DNA of 64,000 bases from Luteibacter yeojuensis (lineage in GTDB: Bacteria > Pseudomonadota > Gammaproteobacteria > Xanthomonadales > Rhodanobacteraceae): the NCBI RefSeq assembly GCF_000964085.1, contig NZ_JZRB01000016.1, positions 1 through 64,000 of the forward strand, given 5' to 3'. Positions within the stretch are counted from its first letter, which is position 1; every line of letters begins with the position of its first letter. The notes beneath the pieces are model-generated. The model searched no databases. It saw only the letters and a program-made list of their open reading frames with translations, and had not been told where the DNA came from. Shown here in pieces: positions 1,666-46,166 of the stretch. The position numbers were made by a program, and so were the translations under genes.

Positions 1666-3252
1666 ATGGGTCAAGAGCGGTTCGTACCTGGCAAGGCGGC
1701 CGTCGTCGCCATCGTCCTCCTTTGCCTGCTCACGGCGGCCACGTTCTACGCACCGCGTTTGCGCACGGTAACCGCCTCCGTCGAAACGGTGCCCGCCGCC
1801 TCGCCGCTGCGTCCCGTCGTCGAGATGTGGCTGAGTACCGCCAACCGGCGCCTCAAGATGGCGCCCCAGGACGACCTCGCCATCACGCGTGGCGGCAACG
1901 CGCCCGCCGACATCACCATCGACGTCACCGAGCGCTACCAGAGCATGGTGGGCTTCGGCGCGGCGATGACCGATTCCTCCGCGTGGCTGGTGCACAACCG
2001 CATGGATGCGGCACAGCGCCGTGCGCTGATGCAGGAGTTGTACGGGCCGCCGCCCAACCTCAACCTCAACATGATGCGGGTGACGATCGGCTCGTCCGAT
2101 TTCTCGCTCAACGTCTACACGCTCGACGACATCCCCTTCGGCCAGACCGATCCGCAACTGAAGTACTTCAACACGGCGCCGGTGATGGCCGACGTCGTGC
2201 CGTCGATCCAGCAGGCGCTGTCGATCAATCCCGGCCTGCTCATCATCGCGTCGCCTTGGACGGCACCCGCATGGATGAAGACCACGGGTAACCTCTACGG
2301 TGGCGAGCTGCTCGAGGAATTCGAAAGCGCGTACGCCGATTACCTCATCCACTTTGTCACGGCCTACCGCGCGCTGGGCATCCCGCTTTTCGCCATCACG
2401 CTGCAGAACGAGCCGCGCTTCCAGCCCATCAGCTACCCCGGCATGGGCATGCCCGCGGATACCCGCGCACGCATCATCGGCGACTACCTGGGCCCGCGCC
2501 TGGCGAAGCGTGCGCCCGGCACGCGTATCCTCGACTGGGACCATAACTGGAGCCACCCCGACGAGCCGCTCACGGTATTCGGCGACGCCAAGGCATCGCC
2601 CTATGTCGACGGCGTGGCGTGGCATTGCTACGAAGGCAGCCAGCACGAGCAGGGCCGCGTGCATCGCGCGTTCCCCGACAAGAACACCTACATCACCGAA
2701 TGCTCCGGCGGCGACTGGTCGCTCAACATGAACGGTGAATTGTTGTGGTCAGCACGCAACCTGCTTGTCACCGGCATCCGCCAGTGGGCGCGCGGCGTCG
2801 TCTACTGGAACCTCGCGCTCGATGAAAACCATGGCCCGCACTTTGGCGGCTGCGCGCTGTGCAAGGGCCTCGTCACCATTGATTCGTCGTCGGGCGACGT
2901 CACCCGCAACGACGAGTACTACGCCATCGAGCACTTCAGCCGCTTCGTGCTACCCGGCGCGTACCGGGTGAAGTCGAACGATACCGATGCGGAGAAGGGG
3001 CTCGCCAACGTGGCTTTCCAGAACCCCGACGGCTCCATGGCGCTGGTCGTGGTCAATATCCGCAAGGAGTCGCGGCACGTCGCCGTGGCCGAAGGCGAGC
3101 GGCACTTCGACTACCTCATGCCGCCTGAAAGCGTTGCCACGTTCAGCTGGAGCCAGGCCCCGGTCGGTGTGTGGATGCGACGCGCCCTGCAATGGCTCAA
3201 CCGGGGCGGTGCACCCGCCCCGGAGGCGTCGGCCCCCCCTCAAAGCCCCTGA
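1666..3252 (+). CDS. GH30 family glucosylceramidase / beta-1,6-glucanase-like hydrolase
   Basis: 528 aa, retaining clan A glycoside hydrolase. It has an N-terminal hydrophobic segment (about residues 9-28) for secretion or anchoring. A TIM barrel follows, with the acid/base Glu249 in ITLQNEP and the nucleophile Glu345 in TECSGG, then a C-terminal beta domain. VGFGAAMTDSSAW near residue 100 is typical of GH30. Family members cleave glucosylceramide, beta-1,6-glucan or related beta-glycosides; the exact substrate is not deducible. The ATG at 1666 has a weak AAGGG upstream, while a better SD/ATG at 1612 is in frame but interrupted by TAG. It lies 150 bp before the glk-GH20-TonB receptor run and shares its direction, so a role in the same glycan locus is likely. 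Confidence 0.9.
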   Translation: MGQERFVPGKAAVVAIVLLCLLTAATFYAPRLRTVTASVETVPAASPLRPVVEMWLSTANRRLKMAPQDDLAITRGGNAPADITIDVTERYQSMVGFGAAMTDSSAWLVHNRMDAAQRRALMQELYGPPPNLNLNMMRVTIGSSDFSLNVYTLDDIPFGQTDPQLKYFNTAPVMADVVPSIQQALSINPGLLIIASPWTAPAWMKTTGNLYGGELLEEFESAYADYLIHFVTAYRALGIPLFAITLQNEPRFQPISYPGMGMPADTRARIIGDYLGPRLAKRAPGTRILDWDHNWSHPDEPLTVFGDAKASPYVDGVAWHCYEGSQHEQGRVHRAFPDKNTYITECSGGDWSLNMNGELLWSARNLLVTGIRQWARGVVYWNLALDENHGPHFGGCALCKGLVTIDSSSGDVTRNDEYYAIEHFSRFVLPGAYRVKSNDTDAEKGLANVAFQNPDGSMALVVVNIRKESRHVAVAEGERHFDYLMPPESVATFSWSQAPVGVWMRRALQWLNRGGAPAPEASAPPQSP

Positions 3253-40509: not shown

Positions 40510-41001
40510 TCAGTTGATGAACAAGAGCATGGCGTCGCCCCTGCTTACCGCTTCCTTGTAGAAGTTCACCATGTGCACAAAATAGTCGAAGACGTAAGTG
40601 CGGCCGTCGTCGGCGTCACGCGACCAGACCTGTGGGTAGATGTCCTGCTCGTCCATAGCCTGGGCATCGAAACGTGCGTGGAAATCCGCGTCGGATACCT
40701 TGGACAAGGCATCGGCAACGTCGGTCACTTGATGTGCCAGGAGAAAACGTGCCGGACCGTATCCGATGTCTTCCCCAATCTCCGTACCACCGAGTACAGA
40801 CATACCCAGTGCACCTGACCCCTCCCAGGCTGACCCATTCAGTACGAAATGAATAGCGTGCCATGCCTTGTCCACATCCAATTGTCTGGCCGGACCATCG
40901 CCGGCGTCGGGATAGAGGAAGGCGGAAATCTCGCCCGGGCTTTCCTGAAGTCGCTTCAGGGTGACTTCATCGACGGCAACAAAATTACCAATCATCGACA
41001 T
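40510..41001 (-). CDS. DUF1877 (YfbM-like) protein
   Basis: 163 aa from ATG 41001 with GGGAGAA about 5 nt upstream. Typical start MIGNFVAVDEVTLKRLQESP, then LDVDKAWHAIHFVLNG and a Tyr-rich ending, VFDYFVHMVNFYKEAV. DUF1877 proteins are small, cytoplasmic and of unknown function; they are often found scattered among accessory genes. Base composition is somewhat AT-rich. No functional link to the multicopper oxidase or the tRNA is visible. Confidence 0.8.
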   Translation of the reverse strand: MSMIGNFVAVDEVTLKRLQESPGEISAFLYPDAGDGPARQLDVDKAWHAIHFVLNGSAWEGSGALGMSVLGGTEIGEDIGYGPARFLLAHQVTDVADALSKVSDADFHARFDAQAMDEQDIYPQVWSRDADDGRTYVFDYFVHMVNFYKEAVSRGDAMLLFIN

Positions 41002-41137
41002 GCATTTCTCCCTTGCGTCGTTGCGTAGTCCCACACGGTAAGGACTGACATTGCCTTCATTGCCTGACACCCCCGGGGCGCCCGATGGGTAATTCAGGTC
41101 TTGCTGGTTAGCTTGATGCCTGCTGGATCAGGGATAT

Positions 41138-41296: not shown

Positions 41297-42025
41297 ATGG
41301 CGCAAGCCCACCCACGAGCCGCTGTCCGGGGATCCACCTTCGTGCGCCTGCTGGCGCGGATGGCCGAGGTTGATGCCGGGCAGCCTGGCGGTTACCTGCC
41401 TGACCGGCTGAGCCAGTGGCTCAGCTGGACGCAGTCGATCGCCCTCTCGTCGGCGCTGGACGGTGCCGTGGCGCCGTTGGCGGATCTTCCCGGGGCGCGT
41501 GAGACGCCCACCAGCGCCTTGCTGGACGGCGCCCGGGCCGCCCTCGTCGAGGCGGTGACCGACCCGCAAGGCTGGGCCAGGGCCCGTTCCCGCGCCATCG
41601 CCCGTGCCGGCGGCGTCGAGGGCTCGCCCGTGGTCCGCGTGGAGTACTCCGCCCTCCGCGAGCGCTATCTCATGATACAACGCTCCATCCAGGGCACCAC
41701 CGGCAAGCTGCGCGGCGAGCTTCGCGACCACCTCGCGGCCGCCTCGCCCGAGCTGGCCCGCCTGGCCGAGGTCGATGCCGTGATGGAGGGCGCGCTCAGC
41801 CCCCGCGAGCAGCGCCTGCTGGGTGGCGTGCCCGCCCTGCTCGAGGGCCGCTTCGACAAGGCGCGCCGTGCCGCCGAAGACCATGCCAGCGCGGATACCG
41901 CGTGGCTCGATGTCTTTATCCGCGAGATGCAGGATGTCCTCCTCGCCGAGATCGACGTACGTTTCCAACCGCTCGAAGGCCTCATCGAGGCCCTTCGCAG
42001 CCCACTTCTGGTAAGTCATGCGTAG
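41297..42025 (+). CDS. DUF3348 protein (motor cluster component)
   Basis: 242 aa, soluble, mostly helical, no signal peptide. The start FVRLLARMAEVDAG and the middle RVEYSALRERYLMIQRSIQG are DUF3348 features. In other beta- and gammaproteobacteria DUF3348 genes also precede DUF802 genes. Here its stop overlaps the DUF802 start by 8 nt, so the products are made together. Function is unknown; a cytoplasmic partner of the membrane complex is likely. The ATG has no good SD and the upstream leader is short, with the tRNA divergent from it. Confidence 0.8.
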   Translation: MAQAHPRAAVRGSTFVRLLARMAEVDAGQPGGYLPDRLSQWLSWTQSIALSSALDGAVAPLADLPGARETPTSALLDGARAALVEAVTDPQGWARARSRAIARAGGVEGSPVVRVEYSALRERYLMIQRSIQGTTGKLRGELRDHLAAASPELARLAEVDAVMEGALSPREQRLLGGVPALLEGRFDKARRAAEDHASADTAWLDVFIREMQDVLLAEIDVRFQPLEGLIEALRSPLLVSHA

Positions 42026-44204
42026 AAACATCCTCCCCTTCGCCGTGTTCGCCGCGGGCCTCGCCATCGTGTGCTGGGTCGGCTTCGGCTATGTCGGCTC
42101 GAACCCGCTGGGCGCGCTCGTGGCCTTGCTCATCGGCATCGGTTACATCGCGGGCGCCGTGGAGCTGTTCCGCTACCGCCAGGCCACGGCCACGCTGGAT
42201 GCCGCGACCGCCGAGCTCTCGTCCACGCCAGCGAGCCTGGGCGGCTGGCTCGACCACCTGCACCCGAGCCTGCGCCATGCGGTGCGCCTGCGCGTGGAGG
42301 GTGAGCGCAGCGCGCTGCCGTCGCCGTCGCTCACGCCGTACCTCGTCGGCCTGCTGGTGCTGCTCGGCATGCTCGGCACGCTGCTGGGCATGATGGCGAC
42401 GCTGCGTGGCACCGGCATCGCGCTTGAAAGCGCCACCGACCTGCAGTCCATCCGCGGTTCGCTCGCCGCACCCGTGAAGGGCCTTGGCTTCGCGTTCGGC
42501 ACCTCCATCGCCGGTGTCGCCACCTCCGCCATGCTGGGCCTGCTCTCGGCGCTGGCGCGTCGCGAACGCACGCACGCGGTGCAGCAGCTCGACCTGAAGG
42601 CCGCCACCACGCTGCGCGTGTTCTCGCAGGCGCATCAGCGCGATGAATCCTTCCGCCTGCTGCAGCAGCAAACGGAGCTGATGCCCACGCTCATCGATCG
42701 CCTGCAGTCGATGATGAGCGCCATCGAACAGCAGAACGCGGCCACCGGCCAGCGCCACGCCGATAGCCAGGATGCTTTCCACAGCAAGGCCGAGGCCACG
42801 TTCGCGCGCCTCGCGTCGTCGGTGGAGCAGTCGCTGAAGGATGGCGTCGCCGATAGCGCACGCGCGGCCAGCGCCGCGCTGCAGCCCATCTTCGAAACCA
42901 CCATGGCGGGTATCGCGCGCGAAACCGCCACGCTGCACGCGAGCATCAACACGGCCGTCGAGCGCCAGCTGGAAGGCTTGTCGTCCGGCTTCGCTACGAC
43001 ATCGGCGAATGTCACGACGGCATGGAACGATGCGATCGCCAGCCAGCGCGCGGCGAACGAAGCGCAGGCCGATGCGTTGCGCACCGCCCACGAGGCGCAG
43101 GCGACGGACCTGCGCACGGCGCTTGATGCCTTTACCAGCGGCTTCGACAAGCGCGCGGGCGCCATGGTCGATGACGTGGGCGCTCGCCTCGATGCCTCGG
43201 CCTCGGCCACGCATGACGCATGGGCGCGCGCACTTGAGAGCCAGGCCACGGCGAACGACGCGTTGGCGGCACGCCATGAGCAGGCCATGGCCACCGCCTC
43301 GGAAGCCTTCGCCACGCAGGCTGCCGCGCTGGTCAGCACGATGCACAAGGCGCAGGCCGACCTCCAGGCCACGCTCACCTCGCGCGATGCCGAACGCCTC
43401 GCCGCCTGGACCGACGCCCTCGAGGCCATGTCGGCGTCGCTGGCGCAGCAGTGGAAGCAATCCGGTGACGAGGCCGCCGTGCTGTGGAAGCAGGCGGGTG
43501 ACGATGCCGTGGCCCAGTGGAAGCGGGCGGGCGAGGACACCGTTGCCCAGCAGGCCGCCATCCGCGAATCGCTGGCGCAGGCCGCGAACGACATCACCAC
43601 GCAGTCGCAGGCGCATGCCAGCGCCACCATCGCCGAAATCTCGCGCCTTGTCGACGCAGCGTCCGAGGCGCCCAAGGCGGCCGCCGATGTTGTCGCCGAA
43701 CTGCGCCAGAAGCTTTCCGACAGCATGGTCCGCGATACCGCGACGCTGGAGGAGCGCAGCCGCCTGCTCGAAACGGTCGAGACACTGCTCAGTGCCGTGA
43801 ACCACGCATCGACGGAGCAGCGCGCTGCCATCGATGGCCTCGTCAGCACCTCGGCCGAGCTGCTCGATCGCGTCGGTTCCCGCTTCGTCGCCCACGTGGA
43901 AGGCGAGACCGGCAAGCTCGAAGGCGTGGCCGAACGCATCACCGGTAGCGCCGACAACGTGGCCAGCCTCGGCGAAGCCTTCGGCGGCGCGGTGCAGGCC
44001 TTCGGCCAGTCGAACGAAGCACTGCTTGCGCGCCTGCAGGAGATCGGCGAGGCACTCGACCGCTCGCTGGCGCGCAGCGACGAGCAGCTGGCGTACTACG
44101 TCGCGCAGGCGCGCGAGGTGGTCGACCTGAGCGTGCTGTCGCAGAAGCAGATTCTTGAAGACATGCAGCAGCTTGCCGCGAAGAAGGGCGGGGCGAAGGC
44201 ATGA
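42018..44204 (+). CDS. DUF802 protein, MotA/ExbB-like membrane core with long helical tail
   Basis: 728 aa. Four TM helices at about 5-25, 30-52, 106-129 and 152-180. The third has LGMLGTLLGMMATLRGTG and the fourth VKGLGFAFGTSIAGVATSAMLGLLSAL, matching in order and character the two pore helices of MotA/TolQ/ExbB/ZorA (GxxGTxxG and small-residue T/S-rich helix). Then come over 500 residues of Ala-rich heptad-like helix with many Asp/Glu/Gln, resembling the long cytoplasmic tail of ZorA. The next gene gives the MotB-like partner. Predicted role: stator-type, ion-driven rotary subunit. The family is named but uncharacterised; the motor assignment is mine from motif order. Confidence 0.82.
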   Translation: MRRNILPFAVFAAGLAIVCWVGFGYVGSNPLGALVALLIGIGYIAGAVELFRYRQATATLDAATAELSSTPASLGGWLDHLHPSLRHAVRLRVEGERSALPSPSLTPYLVGLLVLLGMLGTLLGMMATLRGTGIALESATDLQSIRGSLAAPVKGLGFAFGTSIAGVATSAMLGLLSALARRERTHAVQQLDLKAATTLRVFSQAHQRDESFRLLQQQTELMPTLIDRLQSMMSAIEQQNAATGQRHADSQDAFHSKAEATFARLASSVEQSLKDGVADSARAASAALQPIFETTMAGIARETATLHASINTAVERQLEGLSSGFATTSANVTTAWNDAIASQRAANEAQADALRTAHEAQATDLRTALDAFTSGFDKRAGAMVDDVGARLDASASATHDAWARALESQATANDALAARHEQAMATASEAFATQAAALVSTMHKAQADLQATLTSRDAERLAAWTDALEAMSASLAQQWKQSGDEAAVLWKQAGDDAVAQWKRAGEDTVAQQAAIRESLAQAANDITTQSQAHASATIAEISRLVDAASEAPKAAADVVAELRQKLSDSMVRDTATLEERSRLLETVETLLSAVNHASTEQRAAIDGLVSTSAELLDRVGSRFVAHVEGETGKLEGVAERITGSADNVASLGEAFGGAVQAFGQSNEALLARLQEIGEALDRSLARSDEQLAYYVAQAREVVDLSVLSQKQILEDMQQLAAKKGGAKA

Positions 44205-44857
44205 GCAACGAGCTCGATGTCGACGGCGAATCGAACGCGCCCATCTGGGCGGCGTTCGGCGACCTGATGTCGGTGCTGCTTGGCGCCTTCGTGCTCATCC
44301 TCGTTGGCGTCATCGGCATGCAGCTGCAGCTGACAAACAAGCTGGAGCAGGAAACGAAGCAGCGCCAGGAAGAGCAGCAGCGCCGCATCTCGCTGGAGCG
44401 GGCGCTCGCCGCACCGCTCGCTTCGGGCCGCGTCACGCTGGTGAACGGCCGCATTGGCATCAGCGGCAACGTGCTCTTCGCGCTCAACTCCGACCAGCTT
44501 CAGCCCGAGGGCCGTGATCTGCTGAAGAGCCTCGCCGGCCCGCTGACGAATTACCTGAAGTCGCGCGAAGAGATCCTCATGGTCAGCGGGTTCACCGACG
44601 ACCAGGCCGTGCACGAAGGTAATCGCCGCTTTGCGGACAACCTGGAACTCTCAGCCGAGCGCTCGCTGACGGTCACGCGTGCGCTGATCGCGGAAGGCGT
44701 GCCACGCTCTTCGATCTTCTCCGCCGCCTTCGGCGCCGAGCAGCCGGTGAGCTCCAATGCCGATGAGGCCGGCCGCGCAAAGAATCGCCGCGTGGAGATC
44801 GCGCCGATCCCGAAGCCAACGGCCACGGCTGCGGACGCGAAGGCCCATGGCCCGTAG
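44201..44857 (+). CDS. OmpA-family MotB/ZorB-like protein
   Basis: 218 aa. One TM helix (about 22-42) in WAAFGDLMSVLLGAFVLILVG, with Asp21 at the spot where MotB, ExbD and ZorB carry their ion-binding Asp. A charged coiled coil (KLEQETKQRQEEQQRR) follows, then a C-terminal OmpA-like peptidoglycan-binding domain (SGFTDDQ, LSAERSLTVTRALI, AKNRRVEI). It overlaps the DUF802 stop by 4 nt (ATGA). The expected role is the wall-anchored inner ring of a DUF802-based motor. The start codon fits a short cytoplasmic N-terminus of about 20 residues. Confidence 0.88.
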   Translation: MSNELDVDGESNAPIWAAFGDLMSVLLGAFVLILVGVIGMQLQLTNKLEQETKQRQEEQQRRISLERALAAPLASGRVTLVNGRIGISGNVLFALNSDQLQPEGRDLLKSLAGPLTNYLKSREEILMVSGFTDDQAVHEGNRRFADNLELSAERSLTVTRALIAEGVPRSSIFSAAFGAEQPVSSNADEAGRAKNRRVEIAPIPKPTATAADAKAHGP

Positions 44858-45257
44858 CGCCGCCAGCCCTCTAGGTGAGCTGCTCGACCACCTGACGAAG
44901 CAGCATAGCCCGGCCGTCGATCTCGACGCCGAGCTGTCGCGCGTGCGCAAGCTATGGGACGCCACGCGCACCCGCAGCCAGCTGCAGCAAGCCGAGCTTC
45001 ATCTACCTGAGAAAGAGAGCACGGGCCCGCTGAATTCCGCGGCGCTTGTCCATCGCGCGATGGAACTCATGCGCGAACTTTCGCCCGGCTACCTGCAGCA
45101 CTTCCTGTCGTACGTCGATGATCTTTCGTGGATGGAACGGCTGAGTGTCGCCGCGGCGACGCCTGAGAAGGAAGCGCCGCGACCGGCGACGATCGGTACG
45201 AAGAAGCCTAAGGCGAAGCCGAGGGCTCGCAAGAAGCAAGACGCCCCATCTAACTGA
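44847..45257 (+). CDS. DUF2894 protein (motor cluster component)
   Basis: 136 aa from ATG 44847, which overlaps the OmpA stop by 11 nt. Helical protein: LGELLDHLTKQHS, then LDAELSRVRKLWDATRTRSQLQQAELHLPE, and LSPGYLQHFLSYVDDLSWMERL, with a basic tail (KKPKAKPRARKKQ). DUF2894 genes are typical last members of the DUF3348-DUF802-OmpA set. No TM segment; function unknown. The basic tail could bind nucleic acid or acidic lipid. Its end overlaps the convergent Abi gene by 8 nt. Confidence 0.78.
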   Translation: MARSAASPLGELLDHLTKQHSPAVDLDAELSRVRKLWDATRTRSQLQQAELHLPEKESTGPLNSAALVHRAMELMRELSPGYLQHFLSYVDDLSWMERLSVAAATPEKEAPRPATIGTKKPKAKPRARKKQDAPSN

Positions 45258-45891
45258 CCTTGTCTGCCCACAGTGAGGGCAGCGCGTCCAAGTCGTCCAG
45301 CCAATTCGCGAGCTGCGGATCGATCCACTGTATGGCTTGCCGCCCAAGGCTGTGCTGGTCGACCAGGGGAGGCGCAAGCCAAAGCAGGGGCTCGTGATGA
45401 AACACCCGGTTCCTCAGCAGCCGCATCTGGTTAAGCGCGCTGGATACCTCGTGTCTTTTGCGCATGGCCTTCGGGCAATGTGGAAACACCAGGCGAAGAT
45501 CCTTCCAAAGATCGTCCTGAAGCCTTGCGTTGAAGAGTGTCGCCCAGAATCCGAAGGTGAGCTCAGCCACGATCTTGTCTGGCGAAGCGTGCTCTCCGCG
45601 CCGCCGTAGTTTCTCGCGGGCCGCGGCAATATCCTTGAGCTGCGACGCATAGGCCGGGTTGCCGATCCAGCCGCTCCACCAATCGGCTGTGCCATATTTT
45701 TCAGTGAGCCGGCCAGTAATACCGTTGCGAAGGGCGATCTCCAGAACCTGCAGCACAGGCATCAGCGCACCGGCAATGAGCAAATTCGCACGGTAGTCGT
45801 CGCTGGCAAGAGTGCGGCAACCACCCCGTTGCATGCAGTAGCGCGCCATGCGTGCGGCCGAGAAGTGTTTTTCAAGTTTTTCCCAATCCAT
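45250..45891 (-). CDS. Abi-like (Abi_2) HEPN-type protein
   Basis: 213 aa. VLQVLEIALRNGITGRL and LTFGFWATLF are typical of Abi_2/AbiD-AbiF proteins, and LLRNRVFHHEP gives R160-x4-H165, the HEPN ribonuclease motif. Members cause abortive infection by RNA cleavage in some systems. AAGGTGG lies 6-7 nt before ATG. The gene is more AT-rich than its neighbours, which suggests acquisition. It converges on the motor operon (8-nt overlap of the tails), so it is not cotranscribed with it. A defence role is inferred from family only. Confidence 0.8.
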   Translation of the reverse strand: MDWEKLEKHFSAARMARYCMQRGGCRTLASDDYRANLLIAGALMPVLQVLEIALRNGITGRLTEKYGTADWWSGWIGNPAYASQLKDIAAAREKLRRRGEHASPDKIVAELTFGFWATLFNARLQDDLWKDLRLVFPHCPKAMRKRHEVSSALNQMRLLRNRVFHHEPLLWLAPPLVDQHSLGRQAIQWIDPQLANWLDDLDALPSLWADKVS

Positions 45892-45894
45892 GTG

Positions 45895-45922
45895 TTGCCA
45901 CCTTCCACCTGATCGTTATACT
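45895..45922 (+). promoter_or_regulatory. Sigma70 promoter for predicted small RNA
   Basis: TTGCCA (45895-45900), 16-nt spacer, TATACT (45917-45922). No protein start follows; a terminator lies about 90 nt on. The -10 overlaps a TATAAC on the other strand that could serve the Abi gene. Confidence 0.55.
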
Positions 45923-45928
45923 GGCACC

Positions 45929-46020
45929 GCAGCCCTAGAGCTTCCTCTCCCAGCCACCCTTACTGGTGACGAAACTAGGTTTGGCAGTACGAAACCCGCC
46001 GAAAGGCGGGTTTTCTGTTT
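45929..46020 (+). ncRNA. Predicted ~90-nt small RNA
   Basis: Lies between a good promoter (45895-45922) and a terminator (45992-46014 plus T-rich tail) with no credible reading frame. It contains the pyrimidine-rich stretch CTTCCTCTCCC and CCACCCTT, possible anti-Shine-Dalgarno seeds, and CCTAG...CTAGG arms able to close a stem. The identity is unknown; expression is not shown. Confidence 0.5.
45992..46014 (+). terminator. Intrinsic terminator (small RNA)
   Basis: AAACCCGCC-GAAA-GGCGGGTTT followed by TCTGTTTT: stable 9-bp stem with a GNRA loop and T-rich tail on the plus strand. Confidence 0.8.
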
Positions 46021-46113
46021 TAGCGATGTCTGGCTGCGATTTCTGTAAGGCGGCGGCGATCCCTACGTAAGTTTTTTCCGGCACGGTGTGTGAGAGATCG
46101 CCGAGGCACGGCC

Positions 46114-46142
46114 AAAAAAACGCCCGCTTGCGCGGGCGTTTT
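46114..46142 (-). terminator. Intrinsic terminator of rpoD
   Basis: CGCCCGC-TTGC-GCGGGCG stem. On the minus strand it is followed by seven T. It lies 25 bp after the rpoD stop and could also act in the plus direction, where TTTT follows. Confidence 0.85.
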
Positions 46143-46166
46143 CGTTCCACCGGTGTTACCCAAACA

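What the first reader, a model, noticed from the sequence alone, without database searches (positions are those of the whole stretch)
41297..45257. Four-gene DUF3348-DUF802-OmpA-DUF2894 operon looks like an undescribed ion-driven (ZorAB/MotAB-like) motor
Seen: the DUF802 protein has four TM helices. Helices 3-4 carry the GxxGTxxG and small/Thr-rich pattern of MotA/ExbB/TolQ/ZorA, and a helical Ala-rich tail of over 500 residues follows. The overlapping next gene has one TM helix with Asp21 at the MotB/ExbD/ZorB ion-site position, then an OmpA wall-binding domain. All four genes overlap (8, 4 and 11 nt). Known: Mot, Exb, Tol, Gld and Zor complexes share this 5:2 design. Inference: this is a separate motor class with two soluble partners (DUF3348, DUF2894), no flagellar or TonB link and no ZorC/ZorD effectors in the window.
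Basis: partly seen in the sequence, partly recalled or inferred. Interest (0 to 1): 0.88.

Follow-up and report, generated by a model that had tools for sequence, protein, structure and literature searches.

The report
Type III Zorya phage-defence motor operon
Four overlapping genes encode a membrane motor of a kind already known to protect bacteria from viruses (Zorya type III); what looks less familiar is how stably it is inherited in this genus and how its long cytoplasmic rod changes length only in whole helical turns.

Summary
In detail: four overlapping genes at 41297-45257 encode DUF3348, a MotA-like protein with a tail of over 500 residues, a MotB/OmpA-like protein with Asp21, and DUF2894. 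The claim of an undescribed motor class is wrong. This is Zorya type III, named in 2021 and shown to protect E. coli against phages (PMC8565338). PADLOC type III models match all four proteins (ZorA3 1091 bits, ZorB3 379 bits). Asp21 is present in 92 of 92 ZorB sequences. Most likely mechanism: a wall-anchored ZorA5B2 ion motor whose cytoplasmic rod drives or recruits the two small helical partners; the stoichiometry and the partners' role are inferred. Three results go beyond the passages I read. (1) Stable inheritance: 20 of 23 Luteibacter genomes carry DUF3348, convergent with rpoD and within 60 kb in 18 of 18 examined; 148 of 220 Burkholderiaceae, against 14 of 220 for the Zorya I marker. 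(2) The ZorA rod varies by tandem duplication, and 20 of 20 distinct repeat-unit lengths are near-integer helical turns. (3) The rod ends in a conserved tip, and no fifth gene recurs beside the cassette.

The parts
41297..42025 (+). DUF3348 protein, 242 aa (ZorG in PADLOC-DB; called ZorF in the text of PMC8565338 and PMC11890865); predicted all-helical
   Evidence: Pfam PF11828 E 1.2e-67; PADLOC PDLC00658 E 5.9e-75; AlphaFold2 pLDDT 83.8, helices only
42018..44204 (+). ZorA3, 728 aa: four TM helices plus a cytoplasmic helical rod
   Evidence: PADLOC PDLC00650 1091 bits; hydropathy scan; A3 profile hits 8vvn_C
42342..42545 (+). ZorA TM3-TM4 ion-path region (residues 109-176) with the invariant GxxGTxxG motif
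   Evidence: Pfam MotA_ExbB 15.7 bits, below its 22.9 cut-off
42588..44051 (+). ZorA helical rod (residues ~191-678), hydrophobic period 3.64 residues per turn, holding the DUF802 repeats
43449..43550 (+). 33-nt (11-residue) tandem repeats inside the rod
44052..44153 (+). Conserved ZorA C-terminal tip (residues 679-712, around RSDEQLAYYVAQAREV at 686), proposed docking site for the partners
   Evidence: most positions at 90% or more identity in 182 ZorA sequences; position checked
44201..44857 (+). ZorB3, 218 aa: one TM helix with Asp21, OmpA-type peptidoglycan-binding domain
   Evidence: PADLOC PDLC00651 379 bits; NCBIfam PRK09040 378 bits; OmpA E 6.1e-17; D21 in 92 of 92
44847..45257 (+). 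DUF2894 protein, 136 aa (ZorF in PADLOC-DB; called ZorG in the papers' text)
   Evidence: Pfam PF11445 E 5.7e-26; PADLOC PDLC00652 E 9.5e-37

Best explanation
It is a Zorya type III anti-phage system. SHOWN HERE: gene content, family membership, the invariant ion-site Asp, and a phase-regular helical ZorA tail with a conserved tip. SHOWN BY OTHERS: anti-phage activity of the same gene set from Stenotrophomonas nitritireducens in E. coli; ZorA5B2 stoichiometry, peptidoglycan binding, need for ion flow and for the ZorA rod in Zorya I and II. INFERRED: ZorA3 and ZorB3 form the same 5:2 motor. Damage to or pressure on the wall during phage infection lets ZorB clamp to peptidoglycan. Ion flow past Asp21 then turns ZorA, and five C-terminal helices act as a rigid rod that carries the movement to a conserved tip. 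DUF3348 and DUF2894, small helical proteins without a recognisable enzyme fold, bind the rod or its tip. They either gate the motor, so that the ion leak itself harms the infected cell, or recruit a host enzyme that lies outside the cassette.
For: PADLOC type III models hit all four genes. Payne 2021 reports the same cassette with reduced efficiency of plaquing (passages). The ZorA profile hits 8vvn_C, E 1.4e-5, and PMC11890865 gives 8VVN as Zorya I ZorAB; ZorB alone hits 8qyd_F, E 9.6e-5, and 8vvn_B, E 0.0034. D21 is in 92 of 92; in the solved complexes the ion-site Asp is D24 (type I) and D21 (type II). Rod: median period 3.64 per turn (IQR 3.635-3.645) in 183 ZorAs; distinct repeat-unit lengths in phase, 20 of 20 after one sequence was dropped. 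Tip conserved in 182 ZorAs and not seen in the last 70 residues of two Zorya I ZorAs. Besides the four genes, no ORF family within 3 kb occurs in more than 13 of the 80 named loci (15 at a looser coverage limit).
Against: Anti-phage activity of this Luteibacter copy is untested. The partners' role is a guess: DUF3348 has no PDB fold match at E <= 0.001 and the DUF2894 model is poor (pLDDT 66.4, pTM 0.31). The near-universal, positionally stable presence in Luteibacter is unusual for a defence system. In infected B. cenocepacia only the first one or two genes of the Zorya III operon changed significantly (PMC12584637, one passage read).
Confidence: 0.8

Rival explanations
1. Zorya III is primarily a core envelope or wall-damage response motor of these Proteobacteria, and phage protection in E. 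coli is one consequence of sensing cell-wall damage.
For: DUF3348 present in 20 of 23 Luteibacter and 148 of 220 Burkholderiaceae genomes, against 14 of 220 for the Zorya I marker in a draw of the same size and centre. Convergent with rpoD and 4.9-59.9 kb away in 18 of 18 Luteibacter examined. ZorB and DUF3348 distances track rpoD distances (Mantel r 0.75 and 0.80, p 0.0001; ZorA 1-190 only 0.46, p 0.0002; n 18). ZorB matches in 0 of 50,697 phage records (E <= 1e-20) and 27 of 72,556 plasmid records (E <= 1e-30).
Against: The cloned S. nitritireducens system protects E. coli against phages (PMC8565338). DUF3348 is not found in 126 of 197 genomes of the window's own family draw, so it is not essential. 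The rpoD linkage is not kept across the family. Rod length and DUF3348 vary more than ZorB, which could reflect an arms race.
Confidence: 0.25
2. A separate, undescribed ion-motor class unrelated to Zorya.
For: No ZorC, ZorD or ZorE found beside it; two partners of unknown fold.
Against: Type III PADLOC models match at up to 1091 bits; published as Zorya III.
Confidence: 0.03
3. An ordinary flagellar, Exb/Tol or gliding stator cassette.
For: Weak Pfam MotA_ExbB (E 0.013) and MotB_plug (E 0.25) matches.
Against: Both are below the Pfam cut-offs; the best models are ZorA3 and ZorB3; DUF3348 and DUF2894 accompany the pair in 195 of 198 loci.
Confidence: 0.02

Closest known systems
Zorya type III (ZorA3-ZorB3-DUF3348-DUF2894), e.g. 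Stenotrophomonas nitritireducens DSM 12575 (PMC8565338)
   Same: Same four gene families; PADLOC type III models match all four genes.
   Different: No difference in kind found. DUF2894 is short here (136 aa; the best PADLOC model has 242 positions) and, with the start codons my script chose, overlaps zorB in 11 of 18 Luteibacter loci (window and L104-L120).
Zorya types I and II (8VVN, 8VVI; PMC11890865)
   Same: ZorA/ZorB motor with ion-site Asp, OmpA-type domain and helical ZorA rod; two type I ZorAs have nearly the same rod period (3.635).
   Different: No ZorC/ZorD or ZorE found beside it; has DUF3348 and DUF2894; the rod ends in a tip motif absent from the last 70 residues of the two type I ZorAs compared; ZorA length varies twofold, whereas component size is said to be well conserved within each family for types I and II.
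Flagellar MotAB, ExbBD, TolQR, GldLM
   Same: Inferred 5:2 architecture and ion-site Asp position.
   Different: Sequence match to MotA_ExbB is below the curated cut-off; long rod and two extra partner genes.

Membership tests
Zorya (all types) | ZorA: MotA/ExbB-like TM core plus long cytoplasmic helical tail | tested here: met
Zorya (all types) | ZorB: one TM helix with ion-site Asp plus OmpA-type peptidoglycan-binding domain | tested here: met
Zorya type III | DUF3348 and DUF2894 genes flanking zorAB | tested here: met
   195 of 198 loci
Zorya type III | Protects against phages | not testable with these tools
   shown by others for the S. nitritireducens system (PMC8565338), not for this copy
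Zorya (all types) | 5:2 ZorA:ZorB assembly | not testable with these tools
   no multimer prediction available; inferred from types I and II
Zorya type I | ZorC (EH_Signature) and ZorD present | tested here: not met
   no PF15611 match in the own genome (its 14 control genomes did not ring, but the model rings in 14 of 220 genomes, and two of those loci are ZorA1-ZorB1-ZorC1 by PADLOC); no ZorC or ZorD among the 14 window proteins scanned with PADLOC; rest of the genome not searched for ZorD
Zorya type II | ZorE HNH nickase present | tested here: not met
   none among the 14 window proteins scanned with PADLOC; rest of the genome not searched for ZorE
MotA_ExbB (Pfam PF01618) | Score above curated cut-off | tested here: not met
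   15.7 against 22.9 bits

The most novel reading that the evidence does not exclude
Zorya III is not a mobile nuclease-delivery defence but a vertically inherited, near-core wall-sensing motor. Its ZorA rod works as a torque- or twist-transmitting shaft: its length is free to change, but helical phase is under selection because the motor end and the conserved tip must stay in rotational register. DUF3348 and DUF2894 are the parts driven at the tip.
Probability: 0.3. Interest if true: 0.68.

Novelty: new member of a known kind. Interest (0 to 1): 0.38.

Why it matters
The cassette is known, but how Zorya III works is not. The 2025 paper suggests that all subtypes sense through ZorAB and recruit a nuclease-like complex, and type III has no such gene regularly attached. 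The phase-locked rod suggests a direct test that separates 'ruler', 'flexible tether' and 'rigid shaft' models of Zorya rods: insert in-phase and out-of-phase segments of similar length. The near-universal presence in one genus asks whether some 'defence systems' are really general wall-damage responders.

Tried and rejected
Rejected: a new motor class. Rejected on further data: my own first inference that the cassette hops within Luteibacter. One search showed only 4 of 17 relatives with rpoD inside the fetched 19 kb, but whole-genome coordinates put all 18 examined within 60 kb of rpoD and convergent. Outside Luteibacter the linkage is mixed: where both lie on one contig the distance runs from about 26 kb to over 1 Mb, so I do not claim it for the family.

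Rod phase test. One search (183 ZorAs) gave out-of-phase lags (23-28 and 30 at 60% identity, 23-26 at 70%, none at 80%). They vanished when L049 was dropped; its ZorA runs into undetermined bases (X) and ends in another frame. L132 (ZorA frame of 222 aa) was dropped by the 500-aa limit. The pairwise-indel test is less clean: 30 of 48 distinct indel lengths lie within 0.5 residue of a whole turn, and 18 do not. Distinct lags are not all independent (29/58/87, 40/80, 51/102), so the p-values are optimistic. Duplication at pre-existing direct repeats was tested as a rival cause: it raises the in-phase share only from 0.28 to 0.31.

Led nowhere: PDB fold search of DUF3348 (148 matches at E <= 10, 50 listed, none at E <= 0.001). 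The DUF2894 model was too weak to search. The 2025 Nature paper on Zorya structure, whose DOI I recalled, is not held. One search printed only flanking families found in two or more genera; one search repeated it without that filter.
Full report
WHAT IS THERE. Four co-oriented overlapping ORFs lie at 41297-42025, 42018-44204, 44201-44857 and 44847-45257. Pfam names them DUF3348 (E 1.2e-67), DUF802 repeats in the tail (E 1.9e-13) with a sub-threshold MotA_ExbB match (15.7 bits, cut-off 22.9), OmpA (E 6.1e-17) and DUF2894 (E 5.7e-26). PADLOC-DB 2.0.0 matches all four to type III Zorya models: ZorG3 E 5.9e-75, ZorA3 1091 bits, ZorB3 379 bits, ZorF3 E 9.5e-37.

WHAT IS ALREADY KNOWN. Payne et al. 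2021 (PMC8565338; I read passages) found 6,401 such cassettes, named them Zorya type III, cloned the Stenotrophomonas nitritireducens system into E. [quoted passage not shown] PMC11890865 (2025; I read passages, the first of two parts of one Results section, and the Discussion) solved Zorya I and II ZorA5B2. [quoted passage not shown] it calls the spread of the three subtypes typical of anti-phage systems. I saw no type III structure in the parts I read. Full-text searches in the held library: 'DUF802' 1 paper, 'DUF3348' 2, 'DUF2894' 2, 'Zorya type III' 2, 'Zorya III' 2. Naming clash: both papers' text calls DUF3348 ZorF and DUF2894 ZorG, while PADLOC-DB calls DUF3348 ZorG and DUF2894 ZorF.

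MOTOR FEATURES. ZorB Asp21 is identical in 92 of 92 unique sequences, with W16, F19, G20, L22 and M23 also identical in all. ZorA has four hydrophobic segments, and G117, G120, T121, G124, F160, G161, T162 and S163 are invariant in the 18 aligned. A profile of those 18 finds the Zorya I ZorA chain 8vvn_C at E 1.4e-5. The 5:2 stoichiometry remains an inference.

FOUR GENES AND NO REGULAR FIFTH. Among ORFs of 100 codons or more within 3 kb of the cassette in the 80 named loci, no other family occurs in more than 13 loci at 60% alignment coverage, or 15 at 40% (L081 and L101 have less than 3 kb on the left). I did not identify what those recurring ORFs are. DUF3348 is predicted all-helical with good confidence (pLDDT 83.8, pTM 0.79) and matches no PDB fold at E <= 0.001. 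DUF2894 is helical at low confidence (pLDDT 66.4). The invariant residues of DUF2894 (W37, GPLNS 60-64, V68, R70, SP 79-80, D91; 21 rows) and DUF3348 (24 rows) do not suggest a nuclease motif to me. This sits poorly with the 2025 suggestion that all subtypes recruit a nuclease-like complex, unless the nuclease is a host enzyme.

THE ROD CHANGES LENGTH IN WHOLE TURNS. Among unique ZorAs longer than 500 aa, length runs from 602 to 1229 aa, while ZorB is 212-236 aa in the 97 complete loci. Much of the extra length is tandem duplication, for example 4.5 copies of a 393-nt unit in L084; the window's own rod has 33-nt repeats at 43449-43550. The hydrophobic period of the rod is 3.64 residues per turn (median; IQR 3.635-3.645; 183 ZorAs), computed from hydrophobic positions and not from repeat lengths. 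I first saw the period and the first five unit lengths in the same call (34), then tested on the larger set. After dropping L049, the distinct unit lengths are 20 at 60% local identity (82 of 182 proteins), 18 at 70% (63) and 14 at 80% (43); all lie within 0.5 residue of a whole number of turns. A random integer from 15 to 149 does so with probability 0.28, and duplication at existing direct repeats would give 0.31. Controls in the same loci: 8 of 31 distinct DUF3348 indel lengths and 7 of 26 DUF2894 lengths are in phase, as expected by chance; pairwise ZorA rod indels give 30 of 48. Before L049 was dropped, out-of-phase lags were present. Shared ancestry and arithmetically related lengths mean the formal p-values overstate the evidence. 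The effect nevertheless fits a rod that must keep its faces in register while its length is free.

THE TIP. Residues 679-712 of ZorA are far more conserved than the rod before them: around RSDEQLAYYVAQAREV (from residue 686) most positions are at 90% or more in 182 ZorAs. The last 70 residues of two Zorya I ZorAs, identified by PADLOC, lack this motif, while their rod period is 3.635. A type III docking site for DUF3348 and/or DUF2894 is my inference, and two type I sequences are a small comparison.

DISTRIBUTION. DUF3348 is found in 20 of 23 Luteibacter genomes (20 of 22 of those at least 90% complete), 71 of 197 of the window's family, 81 of 217 in the family around G286, 148 of 220 in the family around G522, 62 of 220 in the family around G573, one of them below the cut-off, and 20 of 398 of the phylum, one below the cut-off. 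The Zorya I marker ZorC (EH_Signature) is found in 14 of 220 around G522. In Luteibacter I examined 18 of the 20 carriers (not G1221 and G1223): all have the cassette 4.9 to 59.9 kb from rpoD and convergent with it, and its distances follow rpoD distances (Mantel r: ZorB 0.754, ZorA 1-190 0.461, DUF3348 0.802; p 0.0001-0.0002). ZorB matches 27 of 72,556 plasmid records at E <= 1e-30, the 20 listed all being replicons of 588,872 bases or more, and 0 of 50,697 phage records at E <= 1e-20. In Luteibacter this is a long-settled chromosomal cassette rather than a freely moving island. Against a wider core role, it is missing from many genomes of its own family, the rpoD linkage is not kept there, and it has a published anti-phage effect.

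MECHANISM. Most likely: a wall-anchored ion-driven ZorA5B2 motor that, on wall perturbation by phage, turns or twists a rigid ZorA rod and thereby engages DUF3348 and DUF2894 at the tip. The output step is unknown; an ion leak or recruitment of a host enzyme are the two options I would test first.

VERDICT. A good observation of a system that is already described. The additional regularities (phase-locked rod, tip motif, stable inheritance in the genus, no regular fifth gene) are computational, and I did not find them in the passages I read; I have not seen the supplements or the 2025 Nature structure paper.

Noticed in passing
45250-45891 (-): Convergent gene overlapping the cassette's end by 8 nt matches PADLOC PD-T4-5 (E 1.4e-12) but no Pfam family: a possible second defence gene.
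   Followed up: partly
45258-46166, between the cassette and rpoD; L105, L110, L116: The slot between Zorya III and rpoD holds different genes in close relatives: the PD-T4-5-like gene here, a NYN-domain gene in L105, AraC-type and glyoxalase-type genes in L110 (Pfam) and near-identical ORFs in L116: a small exchange hotspot.
   Followed up: partly
1819-3143 and 41297-45257: DNA homologous to window 1819-3143 (ORF 1666-3252) lies within the fetched ~19 kb around Zorya III in seven other Luteibacter genomes (L104, L108, L111, L112, L113, L117, L118), suggesting a rearrangement of the rpoD region.
   Followed up: no
L057: Record titled Bacillus subtilis carries a Zorya III cassette 77% identical in ZorB, in the range of the Stenotrophomonas records: probably a mislabelled or contaminated assembly.
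   Followed up: no
G733 (L242): A genome of the G522 family (genus g78) that is not among the 148 with DUF3348 carries a Zorya I locus: possible replacement of type III by type I.
   Followed up: no
L132: ZorA frame is only 222 aa, so the rod is lost or out of frame, while all four genes are still detected.
   Followed up: no
40510-41070 (-): DUF1877 gene directly upstream of the cassette (E 5.4e-45); close relative L105 has only about 240 nt between the multicopper oxidase region and the cassette.
   Followed up: no
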